A stretch of DNA of 64,000 nucleotides, taken from positions 744,001 to 808,000 of the forward strand of contig WJXW01000013.1 of the NCBI GenBank assembly GCA_015832175.1, read 5' to 3'. The notes beneath the pieces are model-generated. The model worked only from the letters and a program-made list of their open reading frames with translations, searched no databases and was not told where the DNA came from. The translations under genes and the position numbers were made by a program. Source of the stretch: Paraphaeosphaeria minitans (Eukaryota; Ascomycota; Dothideomycetes; Pleosporales; Didymosphaeriaceae). Positions 1,105 to 53,175 of the stretch are shown one piece after another; position 1 is the stretch's first letter, and each line of letters opens with the position of its first letter.

Positions 1105-2634
1105 CTAGCTTTCCATCTCGTCTGGTCCTGGACACCTTCCTTTCGTAAAGTTCCATACGTCTACAGAACAGTCCTTCAACGTCTTCTGTGCCGTCCATGC
1201 AAGCTCCGTCTCGGCTCGTCGAACCTCTGCAACACAGAAGCCAACGTCACCTGCTCTCCGGCCTACCTCACGCACAGGAATCGTTCGTCCTGAGGTACTC
1301 TGCAGGCTCTCGTGGACTTCTCGCACTGTATGTCCCCGCCCAGTCCCTGATGGTGGTTAGCAACGTTGTTCAAAGTGCTCTTGGTCAAACTTACCCAGGT
1401 TGTATGTCCGGAAAGGGGCCTTGACACGGCCAGCTGCAGACGCTGCCAAAGCAGCAATATGGCCTCGGGCTAGGTCGACGACGTGGATGAAATCTCGAAC
1501 AGCTGTACCGTCGGGGGTATTCCAGTCGGTACCAAAGATGTCCAAGACTGGCTTTGCGCCTGTCAGGACGGTGGCAATTACAGGGATGAGGTTGCTCGGT
1601 TTCTGGCGAGGATCTTCACCCAGCAATCCCGAATGATGGCATCCAACCTAGTCAACGCTCATCAGCATGTGTCCAATCGGAAAACACGGGTCACCTACCG
1701 GGTTAAAGTATCGCAGGGCTGTGATCGACCACGATGCATCGGACCGCGCAATGTCCGCCAGAATGGATTCACACATGAACTTCGATCGGCCATATGGCGA
1801 GGTGAGACCCATCACTCCGGGTGTCGCTTGTCGCTCAAAGCCGTCGCTGTCGAAGAAGGTTTCGTGGTGATGCACGCAGAGCTCTTCACGCAGTGGGGCA
1901 CCACAGTTGGCGCCTTCGCCGTACACCGTTGCCGAAGATGAGAAGACGAAGTTCTTGATACCGAATTCCTCGAGCAAACCAAGAAACTCCACCATGCCGC
2001 ACACATTGTTCATGTAATATTTGAGTGGCATGCGGATGCTCTCCTCGACCGATTTGTAGGCAGCAAAGTGAATCACACCGGTAATTCTGGACTGGCGTTG
2101 AAGTGTCTGCTCTGGTGCGTCTTCTGGTTCAATTTCGATTCCGGAGTCGGTGCGTTGAAGGGTTGAATACGGAAAATGCGCCGTTGAACTGGCTTTAGGC
2201 TTGCTGCATACGCTGTATGAGGAGTAGCTTGCAAGGACCGATCTCATCAGCGGGCTTCGGTAGTCCAGCTGCTGGAATTGCAATGCCGGAATTGGCTTGT
2301 TGAGCATCGCGCAATGTTCGGCTGCTAATGTCTGGATACGGTGCAAGACGCTTTCGTACGAGTTACTCAAGTCGTCAATGACCAGGACGTTGTAGTCCGC
2401 CTTCAATAACTCGAGCACAGTGTGAGAGCCGATGTACCCAAGGCCTCCCACCACCATGATGAAGGAAGGTGAAGCATTTTCGGCAATATCCAATGGATCC
2501 GCCGCAATTTCTTCGTCAAACAGGATTGACTTTTGGGTGTCCGGGGTGCTGACAGATTGGGGCGACTCAGTGACTGACAGAGAGAAGCTGAAAGGAGACG
2601 ATGCTCCCGTATTCGCCTCCATGTAACATTCCAT
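1105..2634 (-). CDS. uge3: UDP-glucose 4-epimerase, Uge3/GalE type (galactosaminogalactan cluster)
   Basis: Interconverts UDP-glucose and UDP-galactose, and in Uge3 also UDP-GlcNAc and UDP-GalNAc, supplying precursors for galactosaminogalactan in the cytosol. Three exons: 2634-1699, 1647-1395 and 1346-1105, with 51 and 48 bp GT-AG introns, giving 476 aa. The splices restore the family stretches RYFNP-VG and YNLG-TGRG. An NAD-binding Rossmann motif GGLGYIG lies at residues 63-69, the catalytic Ser in SSSATVYG near 234, and the YxxxK pair at Tyr281/Lys285. It is an extended SDR without the mutarotase half found in yeast Gal10. Unusual parts are a Ser-rich N-terminal extension of about 58 residues and an insertion of about 45 residues (about 138-183) before the ITGVIHFAA strand. 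It could be a general Gal10-type epimerase, but its neighbours favour Uge3. An internal Met (residue 6) is an alternative start. Confidence 0.93.
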
Positions 2635-5600
2635 GGCGATATCGAAGAGTTGAGAAGTTTCAAAGAGTGACTGCGATTCTCGACGTTACCTGAAACCAGT
2701 ACCTGCTATCGCCTTATATATGTCGAAGCTTTGAAAATGCTCACGAAGCATACCCCAATCTGGTGGAGTATATTTCGATGCAAGGTTTTTTTTCAGTACT
2801 GCCCAATATCGTTTATGCTGGGCCGTCCCTTGGCACGTTCCGGCCGCTTCATCCCGATTTATTCTTGTCAGAAGCTGGCCCTCCGGTCTACCACTTTCGA
2901 ATATAGGCTTTCCTCGGTTACATCCCTGTACAATTTGTACGGCATCACACTGGGCTACGTATTCCCATATGGTGCGCAAGCGCAGCCTCCAGATGCTTCT
3001 CTGGGATTTTGCAGACCATGCAAGTAGGATCTGGCCTGCAACAAGACGCATACCAATGCCGCTTGATCTGGCCCACACCATCACGCCTACAACCGCTCGT
3101 TTTACTACTTTTGGCCTCACACATATAGACATAACTTCGCAGCATGCATTCACAGATGCTGCACCCTCTCCGGTCCCTCCCCGGCTAGCCTTGCTCAGTC
3201 CTCACAACAGGCAGGTAGGTACACGTGCGCGATTAGCCTCGACCGCCTCCGTTATTCTCCCGCTTCAAGATTTCCCCTCGACCGGAGCGTGGCCTCCCGT
3301 CTTTCAGCTTTACGAAATCTTCCTGGAGCATCCCGTCACTTTGGTTCGAGAGGCATATTTTCTGACCAACGAACGGCTTGACTGAATCCACAAGTACTGC
3401 TCACGGCAATCGAAGACCCGAACAATGAACCCGGTGGTATCGTTACCGCCGAGGGAGCACTTCTAGCATGGTAGTCACAAATTGCACACAGTCAAGTATG
3501 TATGCATAGTCGGTTACATGTCTACCACGTGGTGCTAAAATTTTACTGTGAGTCCTTCACGGAGCTACAGTCTACTTGGGAAGGCATTTGCATGCTGCCA
3601 TGCTCGCACTACTGTATAGAATGTCCATGGTATGTGGACCAGAACCTGCCTCACGTCGCCCAGATTTCCCAGCAGCTGCTTGAAATTTACGGTTCAAGGG
3701 AGGGCTGCAATGGTCAGGAACGCTCCTTTCATTTCGGCATTGGGCATAAGGCAGCACTTGTACTCCCGCACGAGGCGGCGTAGGCTCTGCGGGTCGTATA
3801 GAATTTGTTCGCCCGGACTGACCAGGTTTCGCGGCTGTGGACCTGGCAATCGGATTGTTCAAGGTTTCGGCAGTTGGAGAGTCTGCCACTAAAGTACATT
3901 GGAATGCTTGATCCGGGAGCAAAAAAGCGGCATGCTGTGCAAACATCCTCGAGGTTTTTACGTTATCACTGTGGTCTTCGACAACTTTCTCGTCACTGTA
4001 CGCCGTGTGTACATACTCTGTCTCAGTCGGCGCAATCTTTAAAATCAGTTGAAAGCAATCGCGCTTACGTGGATCTAAAGAAGTACCACCACAAACTGTG
4101 CTTTCTCGAATCGTATCGATTCAATACACTGGGGCATTGGCGTAATGGAGCAAACAAGAATACAACTAGCAACTCGTACATCCCTCTCTTCTAGTCTGGG
4201 GTAATCCTCTCACTCGCCATGTGTTCGTTCGAAGCACCTTCGATGCATAGTGCAGAACGATTTGGATAACAATACGCTCAGACTTGCTCAGCGAAGTCAG
4301 GCTGACTCCGTACTCTGGTTCGGGCTCGGATTCCGATTCACCACCGAGCAACAGCGTGAGTAGTTTGCAAATCCAATCATGCATGCGGTAGCACGTCATA
4401 TTCCTGGCAATCATCGTCAAAGCATTAGTCGCGGACGGTGGCATCTGGTTGAGTGCGTTGACCATCCCCGATCAGCTCTCATCAATCAGGCGGTCGAGCA
4501 CTCTGGCGGGATGCTAAGATTGTGAGAGGTTGGCTGGATACGCGAGTCGATGTGACTGACCCAATCAACTGACGTCCTAGTCTGCGCGGACCGTGAGCCC
4601 GACGACGGAAATTGTTGCCGCTGAGCTACGCCACCAGGAACAGGAATGGCCAGATCATGAAAGGGTGTGCGATCGCGGAAACAAGCAACGAACACTACAC
4701 CCTCCTCTTTCCCCGCGAACCTCGAAGTCCTTCACAACCAGGCGGCAGCGTGGCCTCTCGCCGCTTTTACTTCACCAGGAAGGCAAACCCCTGACCAATC
4801 TTGGTACTGATCTCATCCCTGGGCGCGCTAGAACCCTACCTCTGCACCTTTCCTGCATAACTGCAGCGGTCAACCCGTACCGGTGCCGTCTGGCCAGCAA
4901 GCTGTATATTCGTCCTATACAGCTTCAATCCGGTCTCCACAATTGGCTCACAGCTTGACGTTGCGCCTTTGGTGTTGACGTGGCGTTCATTACCGTACGC
5001 CTACGGCTCCGAGGGTTACAAACTGGCGAACTTTGCTGTGACAATGCCTGTCATCCCGGAAATTCCCAGTTCAATCAGATTGCCGACGCGGCTCTTCGAA
5101 TTTCTCGAAGCCTCCTCCGCTGTCGAATCGCTTGAGGCGAAGCCGCGTGTCAGCATCGTCAACTGATTGGGAAATATATCGGCGCCACTGCCAACGAAAT
5201 GATCGCCATCCGCCACTGCTTCAATACATGCATATCTGCTGTACGACGTTGACACGCATATACGGTAATCGCACGAACATCAACGCTGAGTCGTTTCGAG
5301 CACGGAGCGATCAGGAAGGCTCTACGTCGAAGCGACGAAAATGTTGTTGCTATTCATGGACACGACTTTCCATGTTTGTACATCCCCAAGAGCGTAGTCG
5401 TTCGGATTCAGACACCATCAGCCCATCGCGATATTTCGCAGGTTCAGCCCCAAGCGCTTCGTGATGCGGACTAATGCGAACAAGGCTTTTGTCCAGGCAT
5501 TCAGTTCTCGGAGTGGTGTGAATACCCTCTTTACCTATGCATGTTCTATTGTCTCATGCTCCGTCAAGACTCTAGTGTACGTGCTGAGCACTACCAGGAG

Positions 5601-7493
5601 GGTTCTGGAAGTCCTACTGATGCTATGCATAAGGGGGGAACAACTATCGATTCTGCAAGTGCGACTGACACCTCCGCTTGTGCACCAGTCTACGAAGACC
5701 ACCTTCCTCGGTGTTTCTTGACCTGTATGTCTCAATCTTCTTGTTTAGCGTAGCTCTCTCGCAGGAAGGTGAGCTGAACCGAAGATCACGACATGCAAAG
5801 CCTCCCGCGGAGACAATACCAAGAGGTCACGACATGCAGAATGCATTGCCGACCCAAGATACCGTCCTGCAGAATTGCCTCGCGAGCCCAAGAGGGGGTG
5901 TCATTTCAGCGTTGTGGTCGTGCTTTCCCTCAACCGCATAGAGACACCTGAGGAAACTTTTTACACACCGATCGGATCGTGTAACAATTGCTGTAGCCCA
6001 ACGTTCAGAGTTTGTGACTTTTGTCACGCTGAGACGCATTTCACACACGATTGTGGAGTCTGCAAAACTTTTCACCAACATGGCCAACCATTCGTTAGGT
6101 GCAGTCTACGCTCGTATTGACTAACAGCAGCAGAAGTTTACGTGTCTCGGCATAGCTGGCCCGGTACAAGCAAGTCGGGGCCCATGGGACACACTGGAAG
6201 AACAATCTTCCCCCAAGCCGTTCCTAGGCGCCGAGCTGCAATGCTCATCGCACTGTTTACGGTTCGGACATCGGCCATGCTTCGGGATGCTCATGCCACC
6301 GTAAGCGAGTTTCTTGCAACCGACAGGCGCTAATAGACTGGTACATGCGCAAGAACACTGGCTCTATTACCTCCTGCTCCTTTTCAACCACCCTCAACAG
6401 GGGTTTTTTTTTGAATTAGGGACGCGTACTCCCTGCTTCACAACGCCTTGCGGAATTAGCAGGGTTCTTGAGCATCCCCTGCTGGCGCCTTGTGCCGATC
6501 TCCTTACCTACCCTTGGATCTGGTACAATTCTTCCGCATTTCACCCGTTCGCTGGACCCCAGTCCTCATGTACCAGCACAGAATTCACCTCCTCGATCCG
6601 GTGAAATAACCGCGGACAAATGCCCCACAGTCCCGACTCCAGTGATAGAGGGTTGCAGCAACTCTGCGTTAGCGATGTTTGGGCACTCGTCAACAGCATC
6701 GCGATGTAGCGCACGAGTCGCGGACTAGTGTTGAGTTACTTCGTTCATCGTGTTCGGACATGGCTTTCTACCTAGGACACGGAGACTAAGGGAGTGGATC
6801 TTCTGGCCCACAACCTTAAAATCCACGGTTCTCAGGAAGCTGGCCACTGCAGACGACGACCTTTGAAACGCCACCTTCATCAATAAGCACGCAAAATGCC
6901 GTTTCTTATGAGGCTCAAGTCAGATGAATTCCGGTGATTAGCAGTGTATATTGGAGATGCGGTTTACGGCCGTCGCGGATGATATTGGAGAAGAATCAAA
7001 TGTCCCACAGGCTTTCACCCGCACTTGCCGCCGCGGTGTGTTTTGCCGCACCGGTATATGGCATTTCAAAAAGCTTTCTCTTTGATTGCGCTGACGAAGC
7101 TTACTCTGACATGCCTGCGCCTGCTCCCCACGCGCTGCACCCCGCAGTTCCCAAACTCGTCGGCAGAAATGCGAGACAAGGTACCTCGACCAGGTCGTAG
7201 CCGCATCGGGGCTTACGGGCTGGTGTAGGAAGGAGAATACCGGCGTCCAGTCCTTGCCGTGACATGGTGTTCCACACACGCCTGAATCTGCGCCTTGCGC
7301 GTGATGTTGTTCAGGTCCACTTGCTCTCGTCAAACTTTGCGCGAACCCTTGTGTGCGCCGGATCATGCATAGCTCTTTTCTAGATGCGCAAGTTTCCCAT
7401 TCCGTAGCGTCACCGCTTGCGAAATGCCTCGTTCTTATCGCGTGTCTTCAAGATAACGGTTATGCTGATGATATCGGTAGGTGGTCGGACGTT
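2635..7493. other. 4.9 kb stretch without a recognisable gene (position expected for sph3)
   Basis: Both strands hold only short overlapping frames with no continuous domain and no convincing exon chain. I looked for the GH135 (Sph3/spherulin-4) hallmarks, namely a GIFFDE-like stretch, an NPG strand and a GYV(S/T)T strand, and saw none. The right part should include the 3' region of the GH114 gene and the left part the epimerase promoter. A minus-strand frame at 2945-3145 is Cys-rich, and another at 5016-5255 has plausible composition, but neither shows a family signature. A small imperfect duplication (TCACGACATGCA) occurs at about 5786-5840. The region may hold a decayed gene, a long regulatory region or a lineage-specific gene with many introns. 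Confidence 0.5.
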
Positions 7494-8669
7494 TCATCTC
7501 GCAGAATCTGTGCCGTTCACTGCCGTGATCCTCACATCCTCATCGCAATATTCCACCCAGCCATCCAGGTCCATTTTTTTCAACACGGTGCTGAACCCAC
7601 CGGATCCCGCCGCAGCATCCTGGTCCCCGCAGTACTTGTGCACGACGCTCTTCTTCAGCCCGCTTTTGTCGCCTGCCCCATCGGGGTATTCGATGTGGAA
7701 GACAGGCTTATCGGCGGCGATGAAGGGTGCGAAGGTGTCGCACTCGCTCTCTTCGACGCACTGCTCGTTGACGGAGAAGTGCACGATAGGCAGTACCTCG
7801 GTGATGATGTCGCCGGCGTTCTTGAGGCCGAGCGCGAGGTGTAGCGGGACTGTTAGGTTGGAGAGATAGGCCATGAAGTCGACACTATCGGCGGCGGTGA
7901 GGCCGAGCCCGTTCTCGTTTTGCTGCGGCACAGTCAGTCCTGCGTCCTCGTCTGTCACATGGCAGGCAGATGTCATGTCGAGCTGCCCTGGCAGCAGCAG
8001 CAACAACAGCAATTGGAGCGCGCAAAGAAACAGCCTACTCACGTATCCATCAACGTTGTCTGGATCCACCCCGTCGCACCCCTTCTGCCCCGCCAACTCC
8101 ACCCTCCCCCTCATGATCCGCCTTACATTTTCACTCCCCAACTTCAGCCACCTCTCCCCAGGCCATCCTTCCAATTCCTTTCCCATATCCTCCTCCTTGA
8201 AGTCCCCGCTGTCTGGCCGTCCAGGCTCGTAGCTGCCCCCGCTGAAGTAGCAGATCACTTTCTTGCCAAGGCGGTGCAGCGTGGCGATTGTCTCGGCGGG
8301 TGTATCGAAGAGGTCAATGTCGTAGACGGCAACATCCGGGGTCACACTCGTGGCGTCTTCATCCAGTATCATGTTGGACTGGAGGATGATCTGCCACGTG
8401 ACGTTTACCTTTGGTGTCCACGTGACATTTCCGGTAGGCGTCGGGAGGGGCGGCGAGGTAGGCGTTGGCGACCCATCATGGCCGCCACCGTTTCCGTCGT
8501 TGTCATCGTCGCCGCCGTCGTTGTCGCGCCCGATGGTCAGCCCGAGCCCGAGCCCCAGCGCAAGCGCCAGCACCGCGAGCGCGAGCGCGCCGCCCAGGAC
8601 GAGCTTCCGCCGGAGAGACCACGGCCGGCGGGACGCAGGCTTCTTGGATAGTACCGTTGTTTCGTTCAT
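7494..8669 (-). CDS. ega3: Membrane-anchored GH114 endo-alpha-1,4-galactosaminidase, Ega3-like
   Basis: GH114 enzymes cleave alpha-1,4-linked galactosamine in deacetylated galactosaminogalactan. Two exons, 8669-8043 and 7922-7494, joined across a 120 bp intron to restore DPDNVDGY-QNENGLG; 351 aa. After a short basic cytosolic tail a Leu/Ala/Gly-rich transmembrane segment lies near residues 20-42, then an Asp/Gly/Asn-rich and Pro/Thr-rich linker, then the catalytic barrel. The barrel has VAVYDIDLFDT, KKVICYFSGGSYEPGRPD, GCDGVDPDNVDGY and a VGLKN-like strand (LALGLKN). This is a type II membrane topology with the enzyme outside. The frame is open to another ATG at 8753, which would add 28 Ser-rich residues. 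I prefer 8669 (AAG before the ATG). The intron is a multiple of three and has no stop, so retention would keep the frame. It sits between the epimerase and deacetylase genes, as in the Aspergillus cluster. Confidence 0.9.
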   Translation of the reverse strand: MNETTVLSKKPASRRPWSLRRKLVLGGALALAVLALALGLGLGLTIGRDNDGGDDDNDGNGGGHDGSPTPTSPPLPTPTGNVTWTPKVNVTWQIILQSNMILDEDATSVTPDVAVYDIDLFDTPAETIATLHRLGKKVICYFSGGSYEPGRPDSGDFKEEDMGKELEGWPGERWLKLGSENVRRIMRGRVELAGQKGCDGVDPDNVDGYVSRLFLCALQLLLLLLLPGQLDMTSACHVTDEDAGLTVPQQNENGLGLTAADSVDFMAYLSNLTVPLHLALGLKNAGDIITEVLPIVHFSVNEQCVEESECDTFAPFIAADKPVFHIEYPDGAGDKSGLKKSVVHKYCGDQDAAAGSGGFSTVLKKMDLDGWVEYCDEDVRITAVNGTDSAR

Positions 8670-8753
8670 CTTGTGTGCAGTCGTAGGTACACTTTCCGAC
8701 GAGGGGACAGACACGATGGCTTTTGTACTCCCCCTCCCCCTCCCGCTGAGCAC

Positions 8754-10318
8754 GCTGAGATGAAAACGCGTACCTACCTACACAGGAACACCGGAAGGAT
8801 TTCCGTTCCGGGCCCTCTAATGAAATTCCTCTTAGGCAAAACGAAACGGTCCTTTGCGGTGTACGCAGCGACGTATCAAACTCGTCGTCAGCGACGGGCT
8901 CGAGGCGCAGGCGGAGGCGGTGCGGTGCGGTGCTCCTTCGGCGGGTTGGCACAAGGGCAACGTGGACAGTGGCAGAGGCAGAGGCAGGGGAAAGCGAAAG
9001 CCGTGCAACGTTCTGCTGACATGAGGATTGGGTAGGTAATATGGGCAATGCAATGGGTGGTGCTGGATGGGGCTTAGTGCGTGTGCAGGCGGGTGATATG
9101 GGATTGTGGCGCACGGTAGAGGTAGGCTTTGTGGGGTATGGCGTTGGACACATTGGGGTAGGTATGCATTCGTTTTGGGCAGCTGGATGAATTTTCAGAT
9201 GCATCTTGGCTTGTGGAGAGGAAGTTGATGGCCGCTGGCCGGTGTAGGAGTTGCATCAGACCCAGCACGCAGGTAGGTATGGTACCTACCTGCCTACCTA
9301 TGATGTCGCTCATCCAGCCATCGCGAAGAATTTCACAAAAGGTACCTAAACCAAAGCCGCCCTCGCAACAATAGCGCTCTCCCGGACCGCAAGGAGAAGC
9401 AATTTATCTCCATCCTCATCCAGCTAGTCCGTATCTTCCTCCGCTCGCGCTGAGGCTGAGCCCAATCCCAAATTCACAAACGACTCGCGGAACGAACACG
9501 ATTTACCTACCCTACCCTACGGTACCTACCTACCTAGATACGGTACGGTAGTCCGAGAGAACCATTGCAGAATGCACCAGCACGTACCCACGACCTAGGT
9601 ACATGCATGCATGCATACATACATACAGTACGGTACGGTACGAGAAACAGAGCACCGGCCCGTCGCGTCCCTCAGCCGCACGCATCTCGTATCCATCCAA
9701 AAACATCACGGAGGAGAAAGGACGTCCGCGCATCGGGTCCGAAGACGAAGGTCGCGTCCGTGGGAGAGGTAGCTAGATGGTCTAGTCTAGTCTAGTATAC
9801 ACTGCCTAGGTACCTAGGTCACCTAGCGCGCGTGCGTACGGGACGTCGTGATTGGCGGGCCCAACGCCAACACTACCTAGGAATCCTGTTTGGGAAGATG
9901 CGGATTGTCTGGGCAATGGAATTGCATGCAGTGGGCGCGCGTACGGGTGCCGGTGATTCCCGCGAGGAAGAGATTCTCATTACGTTTTCGATGTATATGT
10001 TGAGGGATCGTGGAGGGTGGCATGGGCATGGGGCGCATTAGGTACCGTACGGTAGGTGCGTTTTGCACCGGGGCGGAATGGAAATGTGTGGTTGGGTTGA
10101 CCGTGCTTGCGATGAGAAGGCTCCAGGGCCAGGCTATTCACTTCGTGGCTCCATGGGAACAAATCAGGACCTTTGCAAAGAGAACTTATTTTGCTGTTGG
10201 GTATAGCAGTACACTAGGTAGGTAGGTATGTACGTCCAGCATTTCCACCGTCGAAGCGAATGCAGGCATCTCTCCCTCCTTGCGTATCTAAATGTACAAT
10301 CCATCCAACACCCCCAAC
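8754..10318. repeat. Intergenic stretch with clustered GGTACC/TACCTACC/GTACGGTA motifs
   Basis: Between the GH114 start and the 3' end of the deacetylase gene there is no credible gene. The stretch is dense in short repeats: paired GGTAGGTA and TACCTACC blocks near 8772, 9271-9302 and 9506-9540; GTACGGTACGG runs near 9540 and 9625-9645; a GCATGCATGCAT/ACATACATACAT run at 9603-9627; TCTAGTCTAGTCTAGT at 9780-9795; GGTACCTAGGTCACCTAG near 9809; GTACCGTACGGTAGG near 10041; and AGGTAGGTAGGTATG near 10216. Many can pair with neighbours as inverted repeats. It should also carry the GH114 promoter. Confidence 0.6.
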
Positions 10319-12671
10319 CTACAAGGGCAGCGCCTTGTTGAACGTGTACGTCCGACTCGCGCCGCTCATGGTGACCCAGTATGTCAGCGGATCCGTGCCA
10401 ACCTGCTCCTTCGTCGCGCCGGTCGACTGCGCCGGCGTGATGGGAAACGTGACCGGAATCGTGGTACCGCACTTGTTGCCGCCCGCGGTGTAAACTGTCA
10501 CGCTCTCGATGCCCTTGCCGTCCGCGCTGATTTGCCAGGTGAGGCTGGGGCGGCACTGGTCGCGGGTTTGGCGGGCGATGAAGGTTGCGGCGAGGTCGTC
10601 GTGTTTGAGCGTCTTGAAGGGCCAGGTTGTGCTAGAATAGTTAGCAGGTGCAGTGGAATATAGAGAAAGGAAACTACCCACAGGCGCATGATCTCCGCGG
10701 TGACGGTTTCTACCCAAGTCATTAGGAGGGAGAACTGGCCCTTTTGCCCGTTGACAGTGGTTTGGGGGACGTCGTTGACCCGGAGGTTTGCTTGGTGGAA
10801 CATGTAGCTGTGACTTTGGTTAGAACAAGGAGCTACAACAGAGGATGGACTTACGCATCCCAGTGCAGGCCGAAGAGGTTGCGCACGGCCGTGTCGCGTG
10901 CGTTGGCCAATAGGTCATTGAAGGTGCCCTTTCCGCCCGAGGTGTTGATCCATTCCTGTAGAGTGCAGGCCGGAAGATCGCAGTTGTAGTAGATGACTGT
11001 GGCCCATCGCGGCATCACATTGATGCCCGCATAGCCGTTGTTAGCTACAGTGGTGTTCAGAGGCCAGAAACGGTTCACTGTGTTCAGCAGTAACGGTCTC
11101 GTGTTGTCGCCGACGACGTTGACGATACCGTTGTCTTTCCAAGCCTGAAGAGCATCCGCGTTGTGCAGGCCAGTGATGGCAGGAGGAATGATACCCTTCG
11201 GGCTGAAGCGTGCAGCAGCATCTAGTCCGACCTGCTTTAGCCAGGCCTGATTGAACGAGATCTCATTGGAAGTATCCGCGTATGTTGCATTGGTGAGATC
11301 CTCGTGAGTACTATTTAGGTTAGTCAGGGTCAAATGACTCAGGTGCAGTGCTTACAAAGTGTGCGAGATGTGGGCGAAAGCGTCGCGGTTGGATCCATCT
11401 GCAAACCAGTTTAAGAGATCATCAATCTCATTACACTCCAAAGACCACGTATACTTGGTCGGAGTTTTTGGCCAGATGTCCTTGCCCGTACCCGGTGGCT
11501 TGGTGTAATCGGGAGGTCCATCGATCTGATCGGGATATTCAATAGCGGTATTCGGATTGCAAGTGCGCTCGCCTTCGGAAGTGTCTGTTGCAGCCTCGAT
11601 AGCTCCATTTCCGTTGTGCCCGATCTCGACGAAGTATTCGGAGCCTTTTGGCATCTTCGCATTGAGCGTAGTCTGCCAACCGACATGTGTAGTGAGATCG
11701 TCAGGTTTGCAGCGGTATGTTTGGCCAGATGGTGTGTAAAGCGGGGTCTCCAGAAACATGTCGTCCACCTGTGTGCTAAAGTATAGCCTGCGGAAGCCTA
11801 CATAGAGACCTCTTGTGACCCAGTTGATCCATGCATGTTGTAGGTAGTTCGAAGATGGAGCCCAATCCAGCGCAAATGGTAGAAACCATGTCATCTGTTG
11901 GCGCGTGCCAATCTGGTTGATGACACCAGCTGTTCCCGAGTTACTGAACTTGGCGAACTCCCAAGCGATTGAAGAGTTGGTGATTTGTGCTGGGTTGTGG
12001 AAGATGCCCGCGATTGTGACATTCGCGCCCCTGATCAATCCGTCAGTTACACTGCAGCTTCGGGTATTGGAGGCATTGGCATTGACCAGGATCGTAGAAG
12101 ATCCTCAGACTTATGCAAAGTCAGCGCAAGGTGGAACTCACGATTTCAAGCCTGCAGTAGAGAAACCAGTAACGTTGGTGAAGACAACTGGCTCATCCTT
12201 AACATTGCCACCAAGACTCACAACCCCAAAATCGCTTGTGGGGAAAACGTCGAGGCGCACCATGCGCACACCAAAGTTTGTCTGGTAGTTGTAGAGCTGA
12301 TTCCATTGCGCTCTTGTGAGAGCACTGTAGTATTGATCACCGTAGTTGTAGCCAACCTCACTGACTACAACAATACCACCGTAGTTCCCGTGGGTGGCGG
12401 ATGCATTGAGTATCGGTAGACTGCCAATCCCGGCCTGGGGGATAGTGATTACTTCGAACGGAATCCCATAGCCTTGGAGACCCGACGTGGCACCATTTTG
12501 TGCAGATGTGTCGTCTCGTGCAAGGACAAGGATGGTGCTGGAGATGGTCGCAGCTGAGATAGCCGCTGGAGATCCGTCATCGGGGGCTGTTCCATTCTGC
12601 TGCGCGAACGTGCTCAGAGTGAAGAGAGTACATGTGAGGAGGAACAACGACGCAAAGAATGATGGCGCCAT
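10319..12671 (-). CDS. agd3: Secreted exopolysaccharide deacetylase, Agd3-like (CE18)
   Basis: Agd3 removes acetyl groups from GalNAc units of galactosaminogalactan, making the polymer cationic and adhesive. Five exons: 12671-12142, 12030-11356, 11310-10855, 10807-10682 and 10631-10319 (introns 111, 45, 47, 50 bp), giving 699 aa. A cleavable signal peptide (MAPSFFASLFLLTCTLF, Ala-Gln border) starts the protein. The metal-binding features of this polysaccharide deacetylase fold are visible: an Asp pair in STQVDDMF (about 266-267) and an HxxxH in SHTFTHEDL (about 400-404), the latter created only by joining exons 2 and 3. Several N-glycosylation sequons fit a secreted protein. The C-terminal exons form a beta-rich tail. 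The start is the Met opening the signal peptide; an in-frame Met at 12827 would bury it. The first intron is long and could hide a small exon. The gene is divergent from the giant glycosyltransferase. Confidence 0.92.
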
Positions 12672-14287: not shown

Positions 14288-17200
14288 ATGCCAGAAATAC
14301 TCGGCATCACTGCTTTCAAGTCTGGTGTAGAGGTACACGAATGGTGGGAATGGACCCTAGTAGCAATACTCGCTGCGAGCGCCTTGATCGGAATCGTTGC
14401 ACTGGTTTGGACCTCTTATGATAGCATTAAGAAACTCCTCCAGGTGAGTACCAGTATGTTCAGAGAGCCACAAAGCTGACAGTTCTGATCTAGCATGACT
14501 CCGACGAAGAACTTCTACCACAATCGGTCCAAGAGCGGCTACTTGTTCTATCCCATACAGCGCATTGTGTCCGGCCGAAGCAGCCCCTTCCTGCTAAACC
14601 GTCTTCTTTCGGCGTATACCTCGGCTTGCTCAGTGTACCTGTCTTGCAGGAAGAGATACAGATACTGGAAGCATGGGACATGGTAGTTCTTGATCTGGGG
14701 CAGCCAGGTGTCTTGCAGGCAATCAGCGACGAGAGCATCGCTCTGGGTCCACACCTCATTGCTCGGCTAGACCTGTTCAAGGTTCTCCCATTTGTTGCCA
14801 AGGACAATGAAATAGATATGCTGAAAGCGATACATCTTATCTCTCTGTTCCTGAACGATGCCGTACGGCGGCCTGACCAACGGAGGTATTGCACTGGCGT
14901 TCTTGTTTCCGGCTGGCGGGAACGAACCTGTATCCGCGTGCTCAACGCCCTCGCCAAACTTTTCCGTGCTTATGGCCTGGACGTGTACCTCGAAGTTGCT
15001 GGGCCGGAATTCCTAGATGAGGTCAAAAAGCTCGATTTCAAGCTTGTTGCTGGCATGGTAGTACGAAATGGTACGATAATGGAGAATGGGGAACGAAGAG
15101 ATTACTTTGCGATGGATAAGATGAAGACGACTACCAAAGCATTTGTGTCGCAGGCATGCTTGCGACCTTTTCTCACGATGATGTGGGACACCGTGGACGA
15201 CCAGGCCGATCTATCGCACGCTGTCACGAGGAGAGCGCACATGTGGTGCAGCTATCATGGGGCGATTCCATACTTTGCGCGGCGTTGCGCTCTGACGGAC
15301 ATTGCCGAGGTGCGCTCTTGCGCAGAACCGTTAGCTGCGTTCCAATGGCTCAAAGATCGGAGAGTCATGAACGTGCATGAGAAATTTCGGACCACTCGAG
15401 TTGTGAGTTGCGAGTTGCACTTATAGAGATTTGTGGAGCTTTCGTGCTAACAATCCCAGCTATCGTCGGAGTTCTCGAGCATCATTGATGACTACCTTCC
15501 GTTGCAGTCAATATTTCCGCTTCTGGGAACCATCATCTCCGGCTTAGACATTCCCGATGAATCAGATGGCGAAGACAACTCAAGCTCTTCGACACTTACC
15601 GTACAATTTCCAGAGATTGATGAGAATGGGGTTCTTTTGTCCTTGGAACCGACGTCTCCTGCGTCGACAGGATTGAACTGGAGTACCGCTGTGGAGAAAC
15701 GTGTCGCAAACCCGTTATCGTGCTCTTACTCTGGCACAATCTACGGATCTCTAGGCTGCTTTCCCATTGGTTTCGACGCCACTCAGACCGACTTCGATCA
15801 CGTTATTCGGTCACAACAGCGCCTACGAAAGCTCAATCTGCTGAGTAAGCTACCCGCGAAACGGCTGCATGAAGTTGCACAGCAGATTCTCAGCTACAGC
15901 ACTTCATCAAGCCGTTACGTTGACCTGGTTCCCACCGCCCGGGACAACCTTTCCACTTTCGCAAACGCCCTCTTGCGGACGAATGATGAGACCGATGATT
16001 ATCATCAAGTGCGGGTGTTTATTGGACTCGACTCCGGGTTCCATACCCCATCAGGGAGCCAGTTTTGGGCAGTGTGGGAAGCCGAGCAGAGAACTTTCAC
16101 TCAAGTCATTTACCTATCAAAGTCGGTGCAGGACATCGCAGGCGCATTGTTACATACCTACTTGAGCAAGTCGCGCTTTACGAGGTACCAGTGTTTCCTC
16201 TTAGAGTACGGACTGAACGAGCACGAGACTGCTTCTGGTCAAATCAAGAAGCTTCCGCGTCGAATAGGACAGGATCTGTCCCTTTTGTCGTCCTCGGATC
16301 TTCTTCTTTATATGCAGCACCTGCAGCACACAGAATGGGACGAGTCTTGTCCTTTACTCTCAGAAATACGTAACCACTGCCAGGAACTACTTATTGATGT
16401 CCCGACATACCGGCAACTCAAGAAGCTCAGCAACATGGACTACATCAGTGGGGCGATAACAGACGAGCAGCTTGTGCACGCTCGGCTCAAATGGTATCGG
16501 CTTTGTCGCCTGCCTTGCCTGGAGCGGGCAGAGGCATTGACGCTTTTCCGTCACATAGACTCGAACTTTCACAACGCTCTATGGTGGCGCGACCACAAAA
16601 GTCTCGACACCATCACGGCCGCGATCGAAGATTTGACGGCTCGGGAAGATGTCGACTCGGTGACGGATTTCGTTTTGTTCTGTATCTTCTGCACAGCTAG
16701 AAAAGCCGCGTTCGAAGAGGTTTACATTGAGGTTTCGGATCGCAATCCTCTATTCAACCAATACTCTGACCAGAGTGCCGCCTTTGCGGAGCTCTTTGCT
16801 TTAGGCTCTCGGTGCGAGGCTTATTTTGACATCATGCCAAGCGACATCGGTATATTGCTCTCGAAGAAGCACAGAGACTACTACAACGAATCTGGGCACC
16901 AGCCTCCAATGTGGATCTTTAATGCACCATCCTTCGCTTCCGCATACGCTGCAGCCCAAACAGACATAGACCCCGATCAGAAAGCCTCAGTTATGCCCGG
17001 CTACCGTCGTTTCACATTCCTCAGCGTATTCGCCATCCCGGCGCTTGTTGGTGGGTTTAATACCAAAGTTCTTTCTCACACCAGCTGACTGTGGTAGACA
17101 TCTTACTTCTTTCTACGACGGGACACGGACTTTACCTCAGTGCCAAGATGCTGCCGGAAGAATCCAAATATGCTACCTACGCTCTGATGACTTCGCTGTT

Positions 17201-20200
17201 ACTTTCAGGGGCCATCGGAACGTGGATCTCGATTGGTGGCACCTACTACCTGATCTCCATGGCTTTTTCTGCTGCGAACATGTTCGTCTTGACCCGACTG
17301 ATCGGTGGCCTCGCTTTCACCCTTGCTGGCAGCCTCATCGGGTTCATCGTCATATCTTTTATCGATGGCCCTCGGCTCGGGGCAATATACTTCTTCTACT
17401 TGGTCGGTCTCACTTCGTATCTTTCTGTATTGGCCGTGCTCTCCACATATCAGATACCAGGATCTTCATTTCTTAACGGCCGCCGAGTCATCATTGCTGT
17501 GGTCCCCACGCTCATCATCTCGCCTATTCTTACTATCTGGATCGAAGGATACGACATTATCATATATCCTTGTGTCCTATTTGTGTTTGTATCGTTACTT
17601 CTACTGGGTACTCGACACGTCGCAACTCAATGGGTGGCATGGTATCACAACATCAAGACCCTCAATGACTCTGACGTGAAGGATTGGTATGTGCAGATAA
17701 GCGCCAAAAGGCAAGCGCAAACCGGTGGCGACCGCACTCGTACGTTTTCTCGTAGTATGGTTGCTGAAGAAGTACTAATATTGCATTAGTGAAGCGCTTG
17801 AGCAAAGGCCCTAGGACTTCAACGGCTATATCCTCATCCCTTGCGCCGTCTACCGAAACCACGACTGATCCAGCTGAGCTGTTTCATGGTCTGAGCGAGC
17901 CAGCTATTCTCGCCTTGTGTCGCACCGAGCTCTACAATGCTGTGATAAAAGAAAAGAAACGCCATTTCTGGACCAGGCCTACCGAGGACACGTTTGTCAG
18001 ACAGCTCGCGGGGTGCTGGGAGTCAACCCTCTTCTTACTGGATTGGTATTGTCGACTCACGGACACAAAACGTCCAATTCCCTTCAGCTCCACTTGGAAT
18101 CTCGAGACGCAGGTCGCTCTGGAGAGTATGCAACAGTCACAGAAAGGAATACGCATGCACAACTCATTCATTCACTGGCGGAATGCTGGCGATGAAATAG
18201 GCTGTGGTATCCTATACTTCCTTACGGCGCTTATGGATCGCTGGCTCGATCTGCTCAACGGCGTGCCAACCTACTATGGATACCTTCCAGCGTTGAACGA
18301 GACACTTCGGCTATCTGTAGGCTTTGGGCTAGCGTACTATTTGATTGGTGCCGTACTTCTCGATTACAAAGCCCAACATTTGCATCAGCTATCGGAACAG
18401 ATGGCGCCGGTATCGATCGAGAACGTTTCCTATGTACGGAAGGCCAAATCCAACGATATGATATTTCGGCGGCATCTTTACTGGAACACGCTTTGTCACT
18501 TTATCGGCGTGCACGTTTGGGCTTTGGCAATAAGCACTGCACTGGTCTGGATCTTCAACAGCTCTCCCCTTGGCACAATCATGTTCTTGGCATACGTGGG
18601 AGCATACAGCGGACTGTTGCTATACCAGTACAACAAAATATTCTCCGGACCACATGCCATAATGCCTCTCCTATGCGCGGTTATTCTTGGATTCATCCTC
18701 GGAAGCCTCCTCAGGAAAGCGCATCCAAACTACCAGTACAACAACGTAATTGCCTTAGCTGCAGCGACGTGGACTGCAGCTCTTCTTTCCTTCAGCACAG
18801 CCAAGCTCGGTCTTCCAGAAGCCTTTGACATCAAAAGGTTGATATCTGAGAAGCTAGAAAGATTCCAACGCCGACCAAAGCTTCCCAATGACTCATCTGA
18901 CTCTGTGCACATTCTTGGTCTTCCCTCTCGGTATCGTATCCACTGGTCAAGCGCAGAAAAGTTCCATGCATACAATGGGACTGGTGTGAATGCTGAATGG
19001 AGTCAGAGCGAGCTTCAAGCGTTTGCTGACAAACTTCGTGCTGCTCCAAAAGAGGATCGCTTCAGAGTTCTGCCATATGGTCATCCTGGGGATCAGGTTA
19101 CCGTGATATTGCTATCGTGCACGCATGAGTCACTCTCGCGGCTCGCGTTGCAAGCATATCCCACAATGCCTTTTCTTGTCCAAAGGACCGTACTAGCATG
19201 GCAAAATGGACTGATAAAAGTTTTCATCGTCCCTATGCAGTCAGTCACGGACGACAAGACTGATCTTCGAGCCATCTCGCAATACTCAGACGGCCGTCTG
19301 ACCTTGTTCGTTGCTTCGGATGCCAAAGGAACCACGTCCGGAGAGATGAACATCAACAGTAACTCTCGTGTAATCGCGGAGACATTGCTACATGCCTGTG
19401 CTGAGACCATGTTTGGTATGCCACACCATCAAGCCGATATTACCGAGTCAATGCTGGTGTGTCGGCCCGCGGGCGATGAACCGTACGTCGTCTCCGAATG
19501 CAGCAAACGCTCGATGCCTTCTAAGACGAACGGTCCTGAAGCCATAGCGTTTCAGACCCTTTGTAGGAAAGAGCTGCTATGTAACCTTTGTCTTGGATAC
19601 GACCCTGACACACAGTGGGATGTTCTGCCTCTCGACATACGAAGAATGTTTCTGCGACGATGCCTTGGGGCTCGCGGGCCATACACCAACACTGAGATGG
19701 CATGGATTCTCTCCAACGTTGAAGCGGAAGAGGCTTGTACAATACTGTCCCGACTGGCAAGATATGATCTCGGGGCGTTCTTGTCCGTGCACAAGTATAA
19801 TTACTTCAGAAACCGTGGCGACCAAGCCCTCAGCGAAAAGGAGTACCGGCAAATTACTGCTGACATCCAAGAGACTCACCATCCCATTCTCAACCGCTCC
19901 ACAACCATGATATTGAGTTATTACACCGCACGGATCAAAGCACCTTTCGAACATGTATATCACTTGATTGGTACTTGGATCAAGTTCTTCGTATTGGCAA
20001 CCATGGCTGACCCTGAGTATCAACGCGAGTTGAACTGCGCATTGGGCAGAACACCGAGGTTCATAGCGAAGCCAGCAACCTTCGTACTTACAGGACTCTG
20101 GATATACAGTCGAGCGGCGATGTCGATTGCGCTTCCCTTCTTCCTCTACCACAATCGAAAAGATATCTCCGACCTCGCTAGCACTGTGAAAGGGAGCCTT

Positions 20201-23200
20201 GTGTCCCAGAAAAAAGACAGGCTTGTTATTCGCAGCTATGGAGAGACAGAAACGGCATTCTTCCATCCTCTGGATGGCCATGGCTTCAAGCTCGTCTTCT
20301 ATCAAGGCAGTTGGAAGCAGGAGCCAACTTGGAATCACACACGTGTCTCAGAATACGGCAAAGACATGCGTATCACCAATCGTAAAGAGTACAAAAATGG
20401 CAATGTTACCAATGAGTTCACCTACGAGTACCCGAGAAGACCAGTGTCTCGATTCGGAAGAATCACAAAGCTCCACAGCACTAGGCTACCACTCGCCCGA
20501 ACCTGTCTTCAGGGCAGCGATGACAGTGCCAAGGTGCAGTACAATGCGAAGGGCCACATTGAGTCCGGAAGCTACATGCAACATGGCAACTTGGTCCGCT
20601 TCAAGTACCATTACCGGAAGAATGCGAAGTACGACGACGAGTTGCTTAGAGCCGAATTCGTGCTTCCGCACATGTCCGTCAATGTCAGTTGGTGTGCGCC
20701 GCCGGTACGTCATGCAGAGAAGATGGAGCGATGGATTCCGACACCTCGGGTTCATGAGGCGGTTTTTGTGCAGGGGGCCGACGTCTACGAGTGTTCTTGG
20801 TTGTACGATCACAAGTTTCACCCAGTTATCTCAACGAAGCTCAACGGAGAGACTGTAGACACGCCCGATATGATACGTCACGACTGGTTAGGCGTCTTGA
20901 AGAAACCGACGCGCTGCACCTTCATGGACGAGAATCCCCTCTTGGACTTCAATACCCCAACGTCAAGCTTCATGAGCCGCTTCTTTCGAACCAACATCAA
21001 ACGACAAGAGATATCTACTTCCCGAGCACGCTCGCAGCTCTGGAAAGCATGGAAGAAGCGACTTGACCTTGACGGTGTGGTTGTTCGCTTCGTGGACGAG
21101 GAGCTTGTTCGTAAGGCATCGCTTTTACGGCCTTACTGGCGTCGGCGTGATCGTGGAAGCCTCATGAAAGCTGAAGATTACTTGGCACTACATGCAGATG
21201 CGATCATGGCAAGTGCAGATCTCACCAGCGACATCAGTGCCTGGACACCCCTTGCTATTCGGATGAGCGACCTCTTCAGCTTTGGACAGGGTGGTGACGC
21301 AGTCATCTTCACGCGCACAAAAACGCTCCAGCAAGATACAGAGAACAATCTTCATGTCATTGCGGTTGATACGGGTACGTGGCCTAATGAGGGTGGCGGC
21401 GTGTCGGCTTGTCGTCGCGACTTGATCAACAATCTTCGCACCATCAAGTGGCACATGGTGGTTGAGTCTGCCAACGATTTTGGTCTTCCGAAGCACCAGA
21501 CGGAAGAGAACGTCGAGTCCCTAAAGATCATCCCACTTTGGGGCCTCGACTTCCTTCACCCTTCACACGGCATGTTCACGAACAAACTGGATAGCGAAGT
21601 TGACCATCTGGTCAAGGACGCAACAATCAATGATATCAAAGTGAACTTCATTCCAACGTTGACTGCGCTGGTCCGCGGAGCGCGCTCGGTCAACATGACT
21701 GCAGCAGATGTCAAGCAAGCTACGCGAGCGCTGGTCAATCTCAATACTTATTTCGAGGATTCCCGCCATTGGAAGGAGGTGTGGACAAGCGAGATTGTCA
21801 AGGACACTTGGAGGAAGCTGTGGCTAGCGGACGACATGCCGAACGCGCAGCCACCGTCCGAGTGGTTTCGCACCGAGCTGCCTACGCTTGGGCACCTCGA
21901 TACTGCTCTGGAGCTGTGGTTCAGATGTAAAGATATAACCATCGCCCCTTGAGAGGCTTTGTGCTGACCATGCCAGATCTTTTCATCTTTTCTATTCCTA
22001 TTCCTGACAAGATCCCAAGCGTTTTCCAGGCCTCGCATCACAGCGTGTCAGCGTCCTACGGAATCGTTTGCAAGCTGAAGAGGAACTGTACCCTTCAGAT
22101 CTGGGATCACGCCATCTCTTGGCGTGAGACGAACCTCTACCTCTCCTCCGCTATGTGTACTTTGCCGCCATTCATCCGAAACTCCCTGCTTGGCTTGATG
22201 AAATTGACATCGTGTTTGATACTGCATCACGCTGATCAGATTCTCCCATGTGCAGGTAAGTTGTGTCCACGGAATCACCAGATATCTGCTAACCTGTCTA
22301 GACTTCTTCAATCCTGGTTGGGAAGTTGAGATCGGCTCTTCGAAGGGTCAACTGACCCACCGAAATGTCTTCCGACGGAAGGTCGATCCGATCGTAAACG
22401 GCATACCCGATATGACCAAGTTCGCTCCTGTGACCGAAATCAAAACGAAATCACCCACTGTTACCATGCTCTCCCACGTGTGGTTCGCAAAAGACATCAA
22501 GAACGCACTCCTTGCCGCCGACATCATCTCCAACGAATGGGGCTTCAAGGACTACAAACTCGACATATACGGGGCACTGAACAAATCGCCAGTTTACTCA
22601 TCAGAATGTCAAGAGATCCTTGCTTGCAAAGGTCTCGGGGAGAGTTGTACTCTTAGAGGAACTGCAGACCCCGCCATGGTCCTGGCCAATAGCTGGCTCT
22701 TCCTAAACTCCTCCGTCTCCGAAGGTCTGCCTCTGGCTCTCGGCGAAGCTGCACTGACCGGCGCACCTGTTGTCTGTACAGATGTCGGTGCTTCCCTACG
22801 CGTGCTCACTGATCCCGATGACGGCAAGCGCTATAGCGAGGTTGTTGCACCAAACGACGCATACGGACTCGCACGTGCACAGATCAACCTCCTCGCTATG
22901 CTCGACGAGTGGGCGCAATATGCAGAGGACCCCCCAGACGAACCGGCGCCAATTCTACCACATAAACCAACACCCCAAGATGTGGAGATCATCACCCGCC
23001 GCATGTACGAGAAGACCGAACAGCGCCGCAAACTCGGCATGATGGCCCGCACGATTGTGCAGAAGTCTTTCGGCGGCGAGCGCTATCTCCGCGAACACGA
23101 GCAGATGCTTTGGATAGGAAAAGCCTGCTATGAGATGCTCGGTCTCGAGAAGCGCATTCCTCCCCCGCCGAAGCATCCCGGCCGCATGCTCTCGCTCAAG

Positions 23201-23800
23201 CGCAAGTCCCGCCAACCCCCGTACACCGACACTGCCTCAAGCAACGCCATCGACCCCCAGCTCGAGAAAATGCAACACCCCCGGCCTCCGCTCGCACGCC
23301 AATTCTCCGCCGCGACGTCGTTCTCGTCCGTCTACATCGACGAGCCCGTCGGTCCCTCGGACGCCATCTATCGCGAAGAACTTTGGGGCCCCGTCACGCC
23401 GGAGTCATCGTTCTACCCCAGATCCGACGTCTCCGCCAAAGAATCTAACTTCAACAATGCCTCGCACATTTCACTTCCGTCACGCACCTACGTGCGGACA
23501 CAAGCGTCGAACGCTTGGCCTGCGAGCTCCTCCATCGCTGTTGGGAAACGGCCTGTGCAGTACGGCTATGGCTATGGGCACGCAGGCGGCTTCAAACATG
23601 TTCCTGCCGCGGTGCCAAGGATGGATCCGCGGAGGAGCGCGCTGATGAGGCAGAGTATGGTGGGTGGAAGTGCTAGGAGCAGTGTCCGGACGAGAAGTTA
23701 TCTCAACGAGGTTGAGGTAGCGGAGTATCCGATGGAAGGGTACGGAAATATGGTTGAGGTCAACGGAGGTGCTGGGGTGGAGCTTGGGGAAAGAATGTGA
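14288..23800 (+). CDS. gtb3: Giant multi-domain membrane glycosyltransferase, Gtb3/Gt4c-like (GT4)
   Basis: Putative galactosaminogalactan synthase. Seven exons: 14288-14443, 14494-15402, 15460-17050, 17098-17739, 17790-21926, 21977-22255 and 22302-23800, with 46-57 bp introns; 3,070 aa. A single transmembrane helix lies near residues 20-42, followed by a long cytosolic region. A polytopic block (about 887-1075, TVVDILLLSTTGHGLYLSAK onward) has roughly six to seven helices. More helices lie near 1280, 1337-1435 and 1830-1890. A GT4 domain begins near 2290 with GTWPNEGGGVSACRRDL and ends with the EX7E motif in SEGLPLALGEAALTGAP near 2711. The C-terminal 250 residues are Pro/Ser/Arg-rich and probably disordered. 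The GT4 part resembles the bacterial PelF type; whether the helical blocks correspond to PelG/PelE-like export parts is inference. Splice choice at 17051/17097 was set by frame and the CTGAC branch site. Confidence 0.9.
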
Positions 23801-23998: not shown

Positions 23999-24256
23999 TC
24001 ACATCGCATATGCTTCATACTGATCCTGTTTCTTTGTCTCGCACCGTCTCGTCATCAGGAACAACATGTCAAACGATCCCCTTGGTGATGCCGTCTGCCC
24101 TCTCACAACAGCATACAGCGTCGCTGTGAAACCTCCATGCGTTCGATATAGCAGCACACTCGCATCGACGACCCTCAGATTTGCAATCCCGTACACCTTC
24201 AGTTGCGGATCCACAACGTCGCCTAGCTTCCGTACCATCATCACAGCCGTGCGCAT
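23999..24256 (-). pseudogene. Relic of the C-terminus of a GMC oxidoreductase
   Basis: On the minus strand, about 55 residues match the last part of glucose-methanol-choline oxidoreductases: GDVVDPQLKVYGIANLRVVDAS followed by a degraded GGFTATLYAVV in place of the usual gn.qat.yaiaE helix. The sequence upstream on that strand shows no SCRMG or FAD-binding part, so only a fragment remains. It has an ATG at 24256 by chance. It lies just beyond the 3' end of the GAG synthase gene and probably marks an old insertion or rearrangement at the cluster border. Confidence 0.6.
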
Positions 24257-52835: not shown

Positions 52836-53175
52836 TCTCTTGCATCCAGCTTCCGCTGCCCGTGACTCTGTGAAGCAGGCTGCATGGGCCCGCATCTATC
52901 GATTCTATCCTTTTGCCGCGATTCGCCTACCTATCCCTACCCCCTAGCACCCGCGCCAACCTCTTCGATACGCGCGGGGGCCTCCTAGCCAAAGCCTACA
53001 ACGACAGCCCTTTTTGGCGACGACAACACCACAGCATACCCGCCGATCTCGCCGGCTCCTTCTTCTGCTTTTCCATCTTCGACGCCGCTGTTCGCGAGAG
53101 CCCGAGCGTCGTGCTGCTGTTCCCCATGCGCCGCGAATAGCACATCCACTTCCTCCATTCGCATTCGCATCCGCG

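What the first reader, a model, noticed from the sequence alone, without database searches (positions are those of the whole stretch)
1105..23800. Galactosaminogalactan-type exopolysaccharide cluster with conserved gene order
Epimerase, GH114 hydrolase, CE18-type deacetylase and giant GT4 synthase lie side by side with only non-coding gaps between them. From established work on Aspergillus fumigatus, uge3, ega3, agd3 and gtb3 encode the GAG pathway and lie in this order. The exon models here all close in frame and keep the catalytic motifs (YxxxK, DPDNVDGY, VDD plus HTFTH, EX7E), so the set looks functional. It predicts that this fungus makes an adhesive, partly deacetylated galactosamine polymer.
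Basis: partly seen in the sequence, partly recalled or inferred. Interest (0 to 1): 0.8.

Follow-up and report, generated by a model that had tools for sequence, protein, structure and literature searches.

The report
Sticky-sugar gene cluster missing one enzyme
A fungus that parasitises other fungi carries the known gene set for a sticky cell-surface sugar polymer, but one of the five usual genes, found necessary in other fungi, survives here only as a decayed fragment in its usual place.

Summary
At 1105-23800 lie, in order, intact genes for a UDP-glucose 4-epimerase (Uge3-like), a membrane-anchored GH114 endo-galactosaminidase (Ega3-like), a CE18/CBM87 deacetylase (Agd3-like; E 1.1e-226 to PDB 6nwz) and a 3066-residue GT4 membrane synthase (Gtb3-like, the only copy found). 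The genome is Paraphaeosphaeria minitans (Coniothyrium minitans), a mycoparasite. Galactosaminogalactan (GAG) clusters of this order are well described in print. No intact sph3 was found here. In that slot, at 3248-3535 on the + strand, is a decayed GH135 fragment: the first 74 of 243 profile positions, with a frameshift and a stop. Each of its two halves is the best-scoring place in the window; 0 of 2000 shuffles reach either. The catalytic part was not detected. Four intact GH135 genes lie on other contigs; one, on C2, is membrane-anchored but altered next to its catalytic Asp. Most likely this is a GAG locus that lost sph3, its step now dispensable or done by an unlinked GH135. Whether GAG is still made is untested. 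A modest variant of a known system.

The parts
1105..2634 (-). uge3-like UDP-glucose/GlcNAc 4-epimerase, 476 aa, exons 2634-1699, 1647-1395, 1346-1105; N-terminal extension and an internal insert relative to solved epimerases
   Evidence: spliced model; Pfam Epimerase; PDB epimerases, best 8wow E 1.8e-81; 94% identical to the row named P. sporulosa DPSP01_007022
3248..3535 (+). decayed GH135 (sph3) relic: first 74 profile positions, frameshift near 3436, in-frame TAG at 3464, 56-base intron-like jump 3332-3387; catalytic part not detected
   Evidence: tblastn pieces; frameshift-aware profile score 77.8 against shuffle mean 26.3, sd 3.8, max 43.0, n=1000; each half unmatched in 2000 shuffles and best of all window pieces; alignment, bases re-read; single copy in genome
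7494..8669 (-). ega3-like GH114 endo-alpha-1,4-galactosaminidase with N-terminal membrane anchor, exons 8669-8043, 7922-7494
   Evidence: PDB 6oj1 E 4.6e-76 with both catalytic carboxylates kept (residues named)
10319..12671 (-). agd3-like CE18 deacetylase with CBM87, 708 aa, five exons 12671-12142, 12057-11356, 11310-10855, 10807-10682, 10631-10319
   Evidence: PDB 6nwz E 1.1e-226 over residues 40-705; catalytic motifs compared; 95% identical to the row named P. sporulosa DPSP01_007025
14288..23800 (+). gtb3-like GT4 transmembrane synthase, 3066 aa, seven exons 14288-14443, 14494-15402, 15460-17025, 17085-17739, 17790-21926, 21977-22255, 22302-23800; 9 hydropathy peaks of membrane-helix type; EX7E at residue 2708
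   Evidence: only one place in the genome for its largest exon; the donor of intron 3 (17026-17084) was chosen between two in-frame options

Best explanation
A galactosaminogalactan locus of Paraphaeosphaeria minitans that lost its sph3 gene by decay while the other four genes stayed intact. Inferred mechanism: Uge3 makes UDP-Gal and UDP-GalNAc; Gtb3 polymerises them and exports the chain through its membrane helices; extracellular Agd3 removes acetyl groups, making the chain cationic and adhesive; membrane-anchored Ega3 trims deacetylated stretches. The step of Sph3, an endo-N-acetylgalactosaminidase thought to cut the acetylated chain as it leaves Gtb3, is either done by an unlinked GH135 (best candidate the membrane-anchored one on contig C2) or dispensable in this lineage. 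Shown: four intact genes with catalytic residues, the relic in the sph3 slot, four other GH135 genes. Inferred: activities, polymer, adhesion, replacement.
For: Domain and solved-structure matches. Agd3 keeps the DD, HxxxH, R and M-x-H positions, and Ega3 both carboxylates. Uge3 and Agd3 are 94-95% identical to rows named P. sporulosa, which fits constraint. Agd3 and Uge3 rows share contig length in 21 of 27 taxa. sph3 lies between uge3 and ega3 in A. fumigatus by locus tag, and between the matching genes in N. crassa; the relic is in that slot. PF12138 lists four intact loci on C2, C2, C14 and C5 and none on C13, even at E up to 10, though that search scored only 10 candidates. The C2 copy L009 has a membrane anchor and keeps the Asp and later Glu of the A. 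clavatus Sph3 site, E 4.3e-36 to 5c5g. The N. crassa GH135 mutant still adheres.
Against: sph3 deletion abolishes GAG in A. fumigatus (papers seen), and the Metarhizium Sph mutant loses lectin staining and pellets, so loss could mean that no GAG is made here. L009 has His where Sph3 has Glu beside the catalytic Asp; in its group that Glu is often lost and twice the Asp too. The relic covers only the N-terminal third, so its assignment to sph3 rather than another GH135 rests on position and motif. In the first tblastn pass, hits elsewhere in the window had similar E-values. In 6 of 8 comparable genomes locus tags leave room for two genes between uge3 and agd3, so sph3 may survive in near relatives; not read. 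No expression or chemistry.
Confidence: 0.68

Rival explanations
1. The cluster is dying: sph3 is lost, no GAG is made, and the four other genes are kept for another reason or have not yet decayed.
For: Sph3 is needed for GAG in A. fumigatus and for lectin staining in Metarhizium (papers seen).
Against: The other four genes have open frames, clean introns and catalytic residues, and two of their proteins are 94-95% identical to rows named P. sporulosa, while the relic is heavily decayed, so the loss looks old.
Confidence: 0.2
2. Ordinary five-gene GAG set whose sph3 merely moved: the membrane-anchored GH135 on C2 is the true Sph3 orthologue and the gap fragment is an old duplicate.
For: L009 has a cytosolic tail, one membrane helix and a GH135 domain, E 4.3e-36 to A. 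clavatus Sph3.
Against: Of 24 GH135 proteins read from its hit list, the first domain has His, Arg, Gln, Ser, Gly or Asn instead of Glu in 16, and Asn instead of Asp in 2 of these. Relatives lie on contigs other than Agd3 in Massarina, Byssothecium and Clohesyomyces, and tags are far apart in P. sporulosa (003706 vs 007025). The relic has a GAW-P motif where L009 and its closest relatives have AWDR or SWER types.
Confidence: 0.15
3. The gap fragment is a chance resemblance and the cluster never had sph3 in this lineage.
For: Only 74 of 243 profile positions align; the C-terminal part scores at the top of the noise (39.0; 1 of 150 shuffles and some other window pieces reach it); other tblastn hits in the window had similar E-values.
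Against: Two adjacent, collinear, same-strand halves are each the best of 1826 and 982 window pieces and unmatched in 2000 shuffles each, in the slot expected from two other fungi.
Confidence: 0.06

Closest known systems
GAG cluster of Aspergillus fumigatus (uge3-sph3-ega3-agd3-gtb3; Lee et al. 2016, PMC4817252, passages; tags of four genes seen, agd3's place recalled)
   Same: same four enzyme families in the same order; deacetylase 6nwz and galactosaminidase 6oj1 are clear homologues
   Different: sph3 is a relic here; uge3 has an N-terminal extension and insert relative to solved epimerases
Neurospora crassa GAG cluster NCU05132-NCU05137 (PMC11356417, passages)
   Same: epimerase, GH135 slot, GH114 and deacetylase in the same order
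   Different: synthase lies at the other end, an extra small gene is present, GH135 is present; its GH135 mutant remained adherent
Metarhizium robertsii and Verticillium dahliae GAG clusters (PMC8224951, PMC13245733, passages)
   Same: same gene families, with GAG production shown by deletion
   Different: five genes each, Sph included; Metarhizium order differs from Aspergillus and its Sph mutant loses lectin staining

Membership tests
GAG biosynthetic cluster | linked UDP-glucose 4-epimerase | tested here: met
   action on UDP-GlcNAc not tested
GAG biosynthetic cluster | linked GH114 endo-galactosaminidase with both catalytic carboxylates | tested here: met
   residues named
GAG biosynthetic cluster | linked CE18/CBM87 deacetylase with its four catalytic motifs | tested here: met
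   motifs named
GAG biosynthetic cluster | linked giant GT4 transmembrane synthase | tested here: met
   3066 aa and 9 hydropathy helices (V. dahliae: 2856 aa, 11). No published Gtb3 sequence was aligned
GAG biosynthetic cluster | linked intact GH135 (sph3) | tested here: not met
   relic only. Filed as a variant, not as a full member
GAG biosynthetic cluster | produces partly deacetylated Gal/GalNAc polymer | not testable with these tools
   needs chemistry or lectin staining
Sph3 (GH135), for the C2 gene L009 | membrane anchor and GH135 domain | tested here: met
   anchor judged by eye
Sph3 (GH135), for the C2 gene L009 | active-site Asp, its neighbouring Glu and the later Glu | tested here: inconclusive
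   Asp and later Glu kept, neighbouring Glu is His
Sph3 (GH135), for the C2 gene L009 | linked to the GAG cluster | tested here: not met
   contig C2, not C13

The most novel reading that the evidence does not exclude
A functional GAG pathway without canonical Sph3: P. minitans makes adhesive GAG with the cluster-linked GH135 long lost, either because chain cutting at export is not needed or because a membrane-anchored GH135 with a changed active site (Asp-His in place of Asp-Glu) took over from another contig. This would contradict the view, from Aspergillus and Metarhizium, that Sph3 is essential to the pathway.
Probability: 0.35. Interest if true: 0.5.

Novelty: new variant of a known kind. 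Interest (0 to 1): 0.35.

Why it matters
Why Sph3 is required for GAG in A. fumigatus is described as unclear in a 2020 review (passage). A natural lineage that kept the synthase, deacetylase and galactosaminidase but lost sph3 would be a test of that requirement. The host is also a mycoparasite of Sclerotinia sclerotiorum, itself listed as carrying a GAG cluster, so self-made and host GAG may meet on the same surface.

Tried and rejected
An intact sph3 elsewhere as a simple relocation: four PF12138 loci were read. Three (L010, L011, L012) start directly at the barrel with no membrane anchor that I could see; L009 is anchored but belongs to a GH135 group with a changed active site, so I did not call it the Sph3 orthologue. 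No tree was built.

Repeat-induced mutation or a transposon as the cause of decay: dinucleotide indices of the gap are unremarkable and the gap DNA occurs once in the genome. Rejected.

Catalytic part of the relic: searched in 3530-4530, score 39.0 with 1 of 150 shuffles reaching it and other window pieces up to 42.5. Not claimed.

First tblastn pass: the two best rows were 23163-23441 (E 2.9e-4) and the relic at 3236-3346 (3.2e-4), and 8019-8162 had 7.3e-4. I took up the relic because several queries hit it with collinear pieces; the profile test followed. An HMM search at loose cut-off, which scored 10 candidates, did not list the relic.

Papers on loss of sph3: searches (20 of 27 papers listed; 20 of 61; 4 of 4; 30 of 62) listed no title or abstract start that reports it; most listed papers were not opened. 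Of 26 papers holding two of the three terms GAG, Coniothyrium minitans and Paraphaeosphaeria, 20 were listed and none of these held both GAG and Coniothyrium minitans. Bamford 2015 on Sph3 is not held and is known only through citing papers.

The Metarhizium Sph result counts against dispensability, so I lowered the best explanation from 0.72 to 0.68 and the novel case from 0.40 to 0.35, and raised the dying-cluster rival from 0.15 to 0.20.
Full report
WHAT IS THERE. The window is contig C13:744001-808000 of a 47.45-Mb, 30-contig fungal assembly. A GH135 protein read from another contig of the same assembly (C2, 4,812,501 bases) is 100% identical to a protein named Paraphaeosphaeria minitans PMIN04_008361, whose longest contig has exactly that length. 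The species is therefore P. minitans (Pleosporales, Didymosphaeriaceae), also called Coniothyrium minitans, a mycoparasite of Sclerotinia (abstract starts seen).

FOUR INTACT GENES. Splicing by GT-AG junctions gives closed frames for all four genes: uge3-like 476 aa (- strand, 1105-2634), ega3-like with an N-terminal membrane helix (- strand, 7494-8669), agd3-like 708 aa (- strand, 10319-12671) and gtb3-like 3066 aa (+ strand, 14288-23800). One gtb3 junction (intron 3) had two in-frame options. Pfam names the families. Against solved structures, the deacetylase matches A. fumigatus Agd3 6nwz at E 1.1e-226, the GH114 matches Ega3 6oj1 at 4.6e-76, and the epimerase matches UDP-glucose 4-epimerases. 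By motif and spacing, Agd3 keeps the base and metal Asp pair, both metal His, the CM3 Arg and the CM4 Met and His listed in the structure paper. Ega3 keeps both carboxylates. Gtb3 keeps EX7E and shows 9 hydropathy peaks.

COPY NUMBER. The largest gtb3 exon has one place in the genome. There is a second, unlinked Agd3 on C10 (44-46% identity) and another epimerase on C2 (34-47% by piece). GH114 matches also occur on C6, C5 and C18 (31-51% identity to the cluster enzyme, by piece), plus a weak one with stops inside on C3. These searches score only the best candidates, so the counts are lower bounds.

SYNTENY. The published cluster has five genes (passages). In A. fumigatus the tags run uge3 07910, sph3 07900, ega3 07890, gtb3 07860; agd3 between ega3 and gtb3 is recalled. 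In N. crassa GH135 NCU05135 lies between the epimerase NCU05133 (with one small gene between) and GH114 NCU05136, then the deacetylase NCU05137. My two hit lists show the best 120 rows each (of 707 and 7999 hits); 27 taxon names occur in both. In 21 the Agd3 and Uge3 rows give the same longest-contig length. In six they do not: P. sporulosa and Coniosporium apollinis (multi-member rows, but tags three apart), Delitschia, Tothia, Venturia effusa and Elasticomyces (different strains named). Equal contig length is my proxy for linkage. By it, the pair is linked in many Pleosporales and in some other ascomycetes.

THE MISSING GENE. PF12138 (GH135) finds intact genes at two places on C2 and one each on C14 and C5, none on C13, also at E up to 10; each search scored 10 candidates. 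Yet tblastn of 55 GH135 queries (the 54 found plus the printed part of 5c5g) put several at 3233-3346 + and further pieces at 3385-3435 and 3449-3535, in order. On E-value alone this did not stand out: 23163-23441 and 8019-8162 had similar values.

TESTING THE RELIC. I built a GH135 profile from 29 domain sequences (243 columns). Five of the 23 hit-list proteins tried (P0152, P0169, P0170, P0137, P0140) were not used because my start-motif filter missed them; two that were used (P0149, P0167) were among the tblastn finders. I aligned the profile to DNA with gap, frameshift and intron penalties of my own choosing. The whole profile scores 77.8 in 2900-4300 +, against 120 shuffles with mean 34.3 and max 60.9, and 78 other window pieces with max 55.0. 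The score comes from the first 74 columns, at 3248-3535 +. For those columns 1000 shuffles give mean 26.3, sd 3.8, max 43.0, and among 636 window pieces on both strands the top three all overlap the relic, the next scoring 45.8. A further 256 pieces of fetched loci without known GH135, some overlapping this window, reach at most 44.7. Split in two, each half is the best of all window pieces (1826 and 982), and 0 of 2000 shuffles reach it. Intact paralogues score 298-314 on the same columns, but they are in the profile. The alignment crosses an insertion of three codons, a 56-base intron-like jump, a frameshift near 3436 and a TAG at 3464. The part with the catalytic Asp and Glu was not found. 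I read the stretch as a decayed GH135 in the sph3 slot. Because the decay is far advanced while the neighbours are 94-95% identical to rows named P. sporulosa, the loss looks old; this is inference.

RELATIVES. Locus tags or protein numbers of Uge3 and Agd3 could be compared in 8 linked genomes: three apart in 6 (P. sporulosa, Neocucurbitaria in its steps of ten, Plenodomus lindquistii, Pleosporales CAS-2024a, Coniosporium apollinis, Clohesyomyces), two apart in Coniothyrium glycines, one apart in Oculimacula. Three apart leaves room for ega3 plus one more gene, perhaps sph3. This counts against a wide loss in the order, but what that gene is was not seen.

POSSIBLE REPLACEMENT. L009 on C2 encodes a cytosolic tail, one membrane helix and a GH135 domain (E 4.3e-36 to A. 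clavatus Sph3). It keeps the Asp and the later Glu of the site (5c5g chain positions 116 and 172; 166 and 222 if the chain is offset by 50; one paper passage prints Asp196/Glu222), but has His beside the Asp. Among the 24 proteins I read of the 54 in its hit list, the first domain has Asp-Glu in 8, Asp-His in 7, Asp-Arg in 4, Asp with Gln, Ser or Gly in one each, and Asn for Asp in 2. So activity is uncertain. Its relatives are on contigs of other lengths than Agd3 in Massarina, Byssothecium and Clohesyomyces, and far away by tag in P. sporulosa.

IS GAG STILL MADE? Reports differ. A. fumigatus needs Sph3. In Metarhizium the Sph mutant loses soybean-agglutinin staining and pellets, as the Uge and Gtb mutants do. 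In N. crassa the GH135 mutant still adheres to glass (the PCR check of deletions described there names the synthase, GH114 and deacetylase genes). The best account is a GAG locus whose Sph3 step is now done elsewhere or not needed; a non-productive locus is the main rival. The system is a known kind with one informative gap, hence moderate interest.

Noticed in passing
L009 (C2:1653083-1653864) and L011 (C2:1762411-1763244); proteins P0128, P0131, P0137, P0140, P0144, P0148, P0149, P0154, P0157, P0158: In these ten ascomycete proteins a membrane-anchored-type GH135 and a second GH135 are predicted as one two-domain protein (two Pfam stretches in 5 of the 5 scanned, the rest by eye); in P. minitans the two types are separate genes about 109 kb apart on C2. 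The second domain often lacks its first exon's residues, so some fusions may be gene-prediction joins of neighbours.
   Followed up: partly
L015 (C10:1071586-1072759): A second, unlinked Agd3-type deacetylase, 44-46% identical to the cluster one; several other species also show two.
   Followed up: partly
L002 (C6), L003 (C5), L004 (C18), C3:3124452-3124861: Further GH114 genes outside the cluster; the C3 match has three stops inside. In a mycoparasite these could act on host GAG (speculation).
   Followed up: no
window 1105-2634: Uge3 carries an N-terminal extension (at least 34 residues) and an insert of about 50 residues relative to the best solved epimerase 8wow; hits of similar length are common in Pleosporales.
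   Followed up: no
window 52948-57241: Hybrid histidine kinase: the frame 53876-57241 has repeated HAMP domains, HisKA, HATPase and receiver (Pfam); looks like the fungal group III kinase (Nik1/Os-1 type; name from recall). The upstream frame from 52948 was not scanned.
   Followed up: partly
window 36135-37475, 46866-48260, 60963-62948: Other neighbours: subtilase, Nsp1-type nucleoporin, SNF2-family helicase; no link to GAG seen.
   Followed up: partly
window 24024-24737: Open frame of 237 aa just downstream of gtb3 with no Pfam match at E up to 1.
   Followed up: partly
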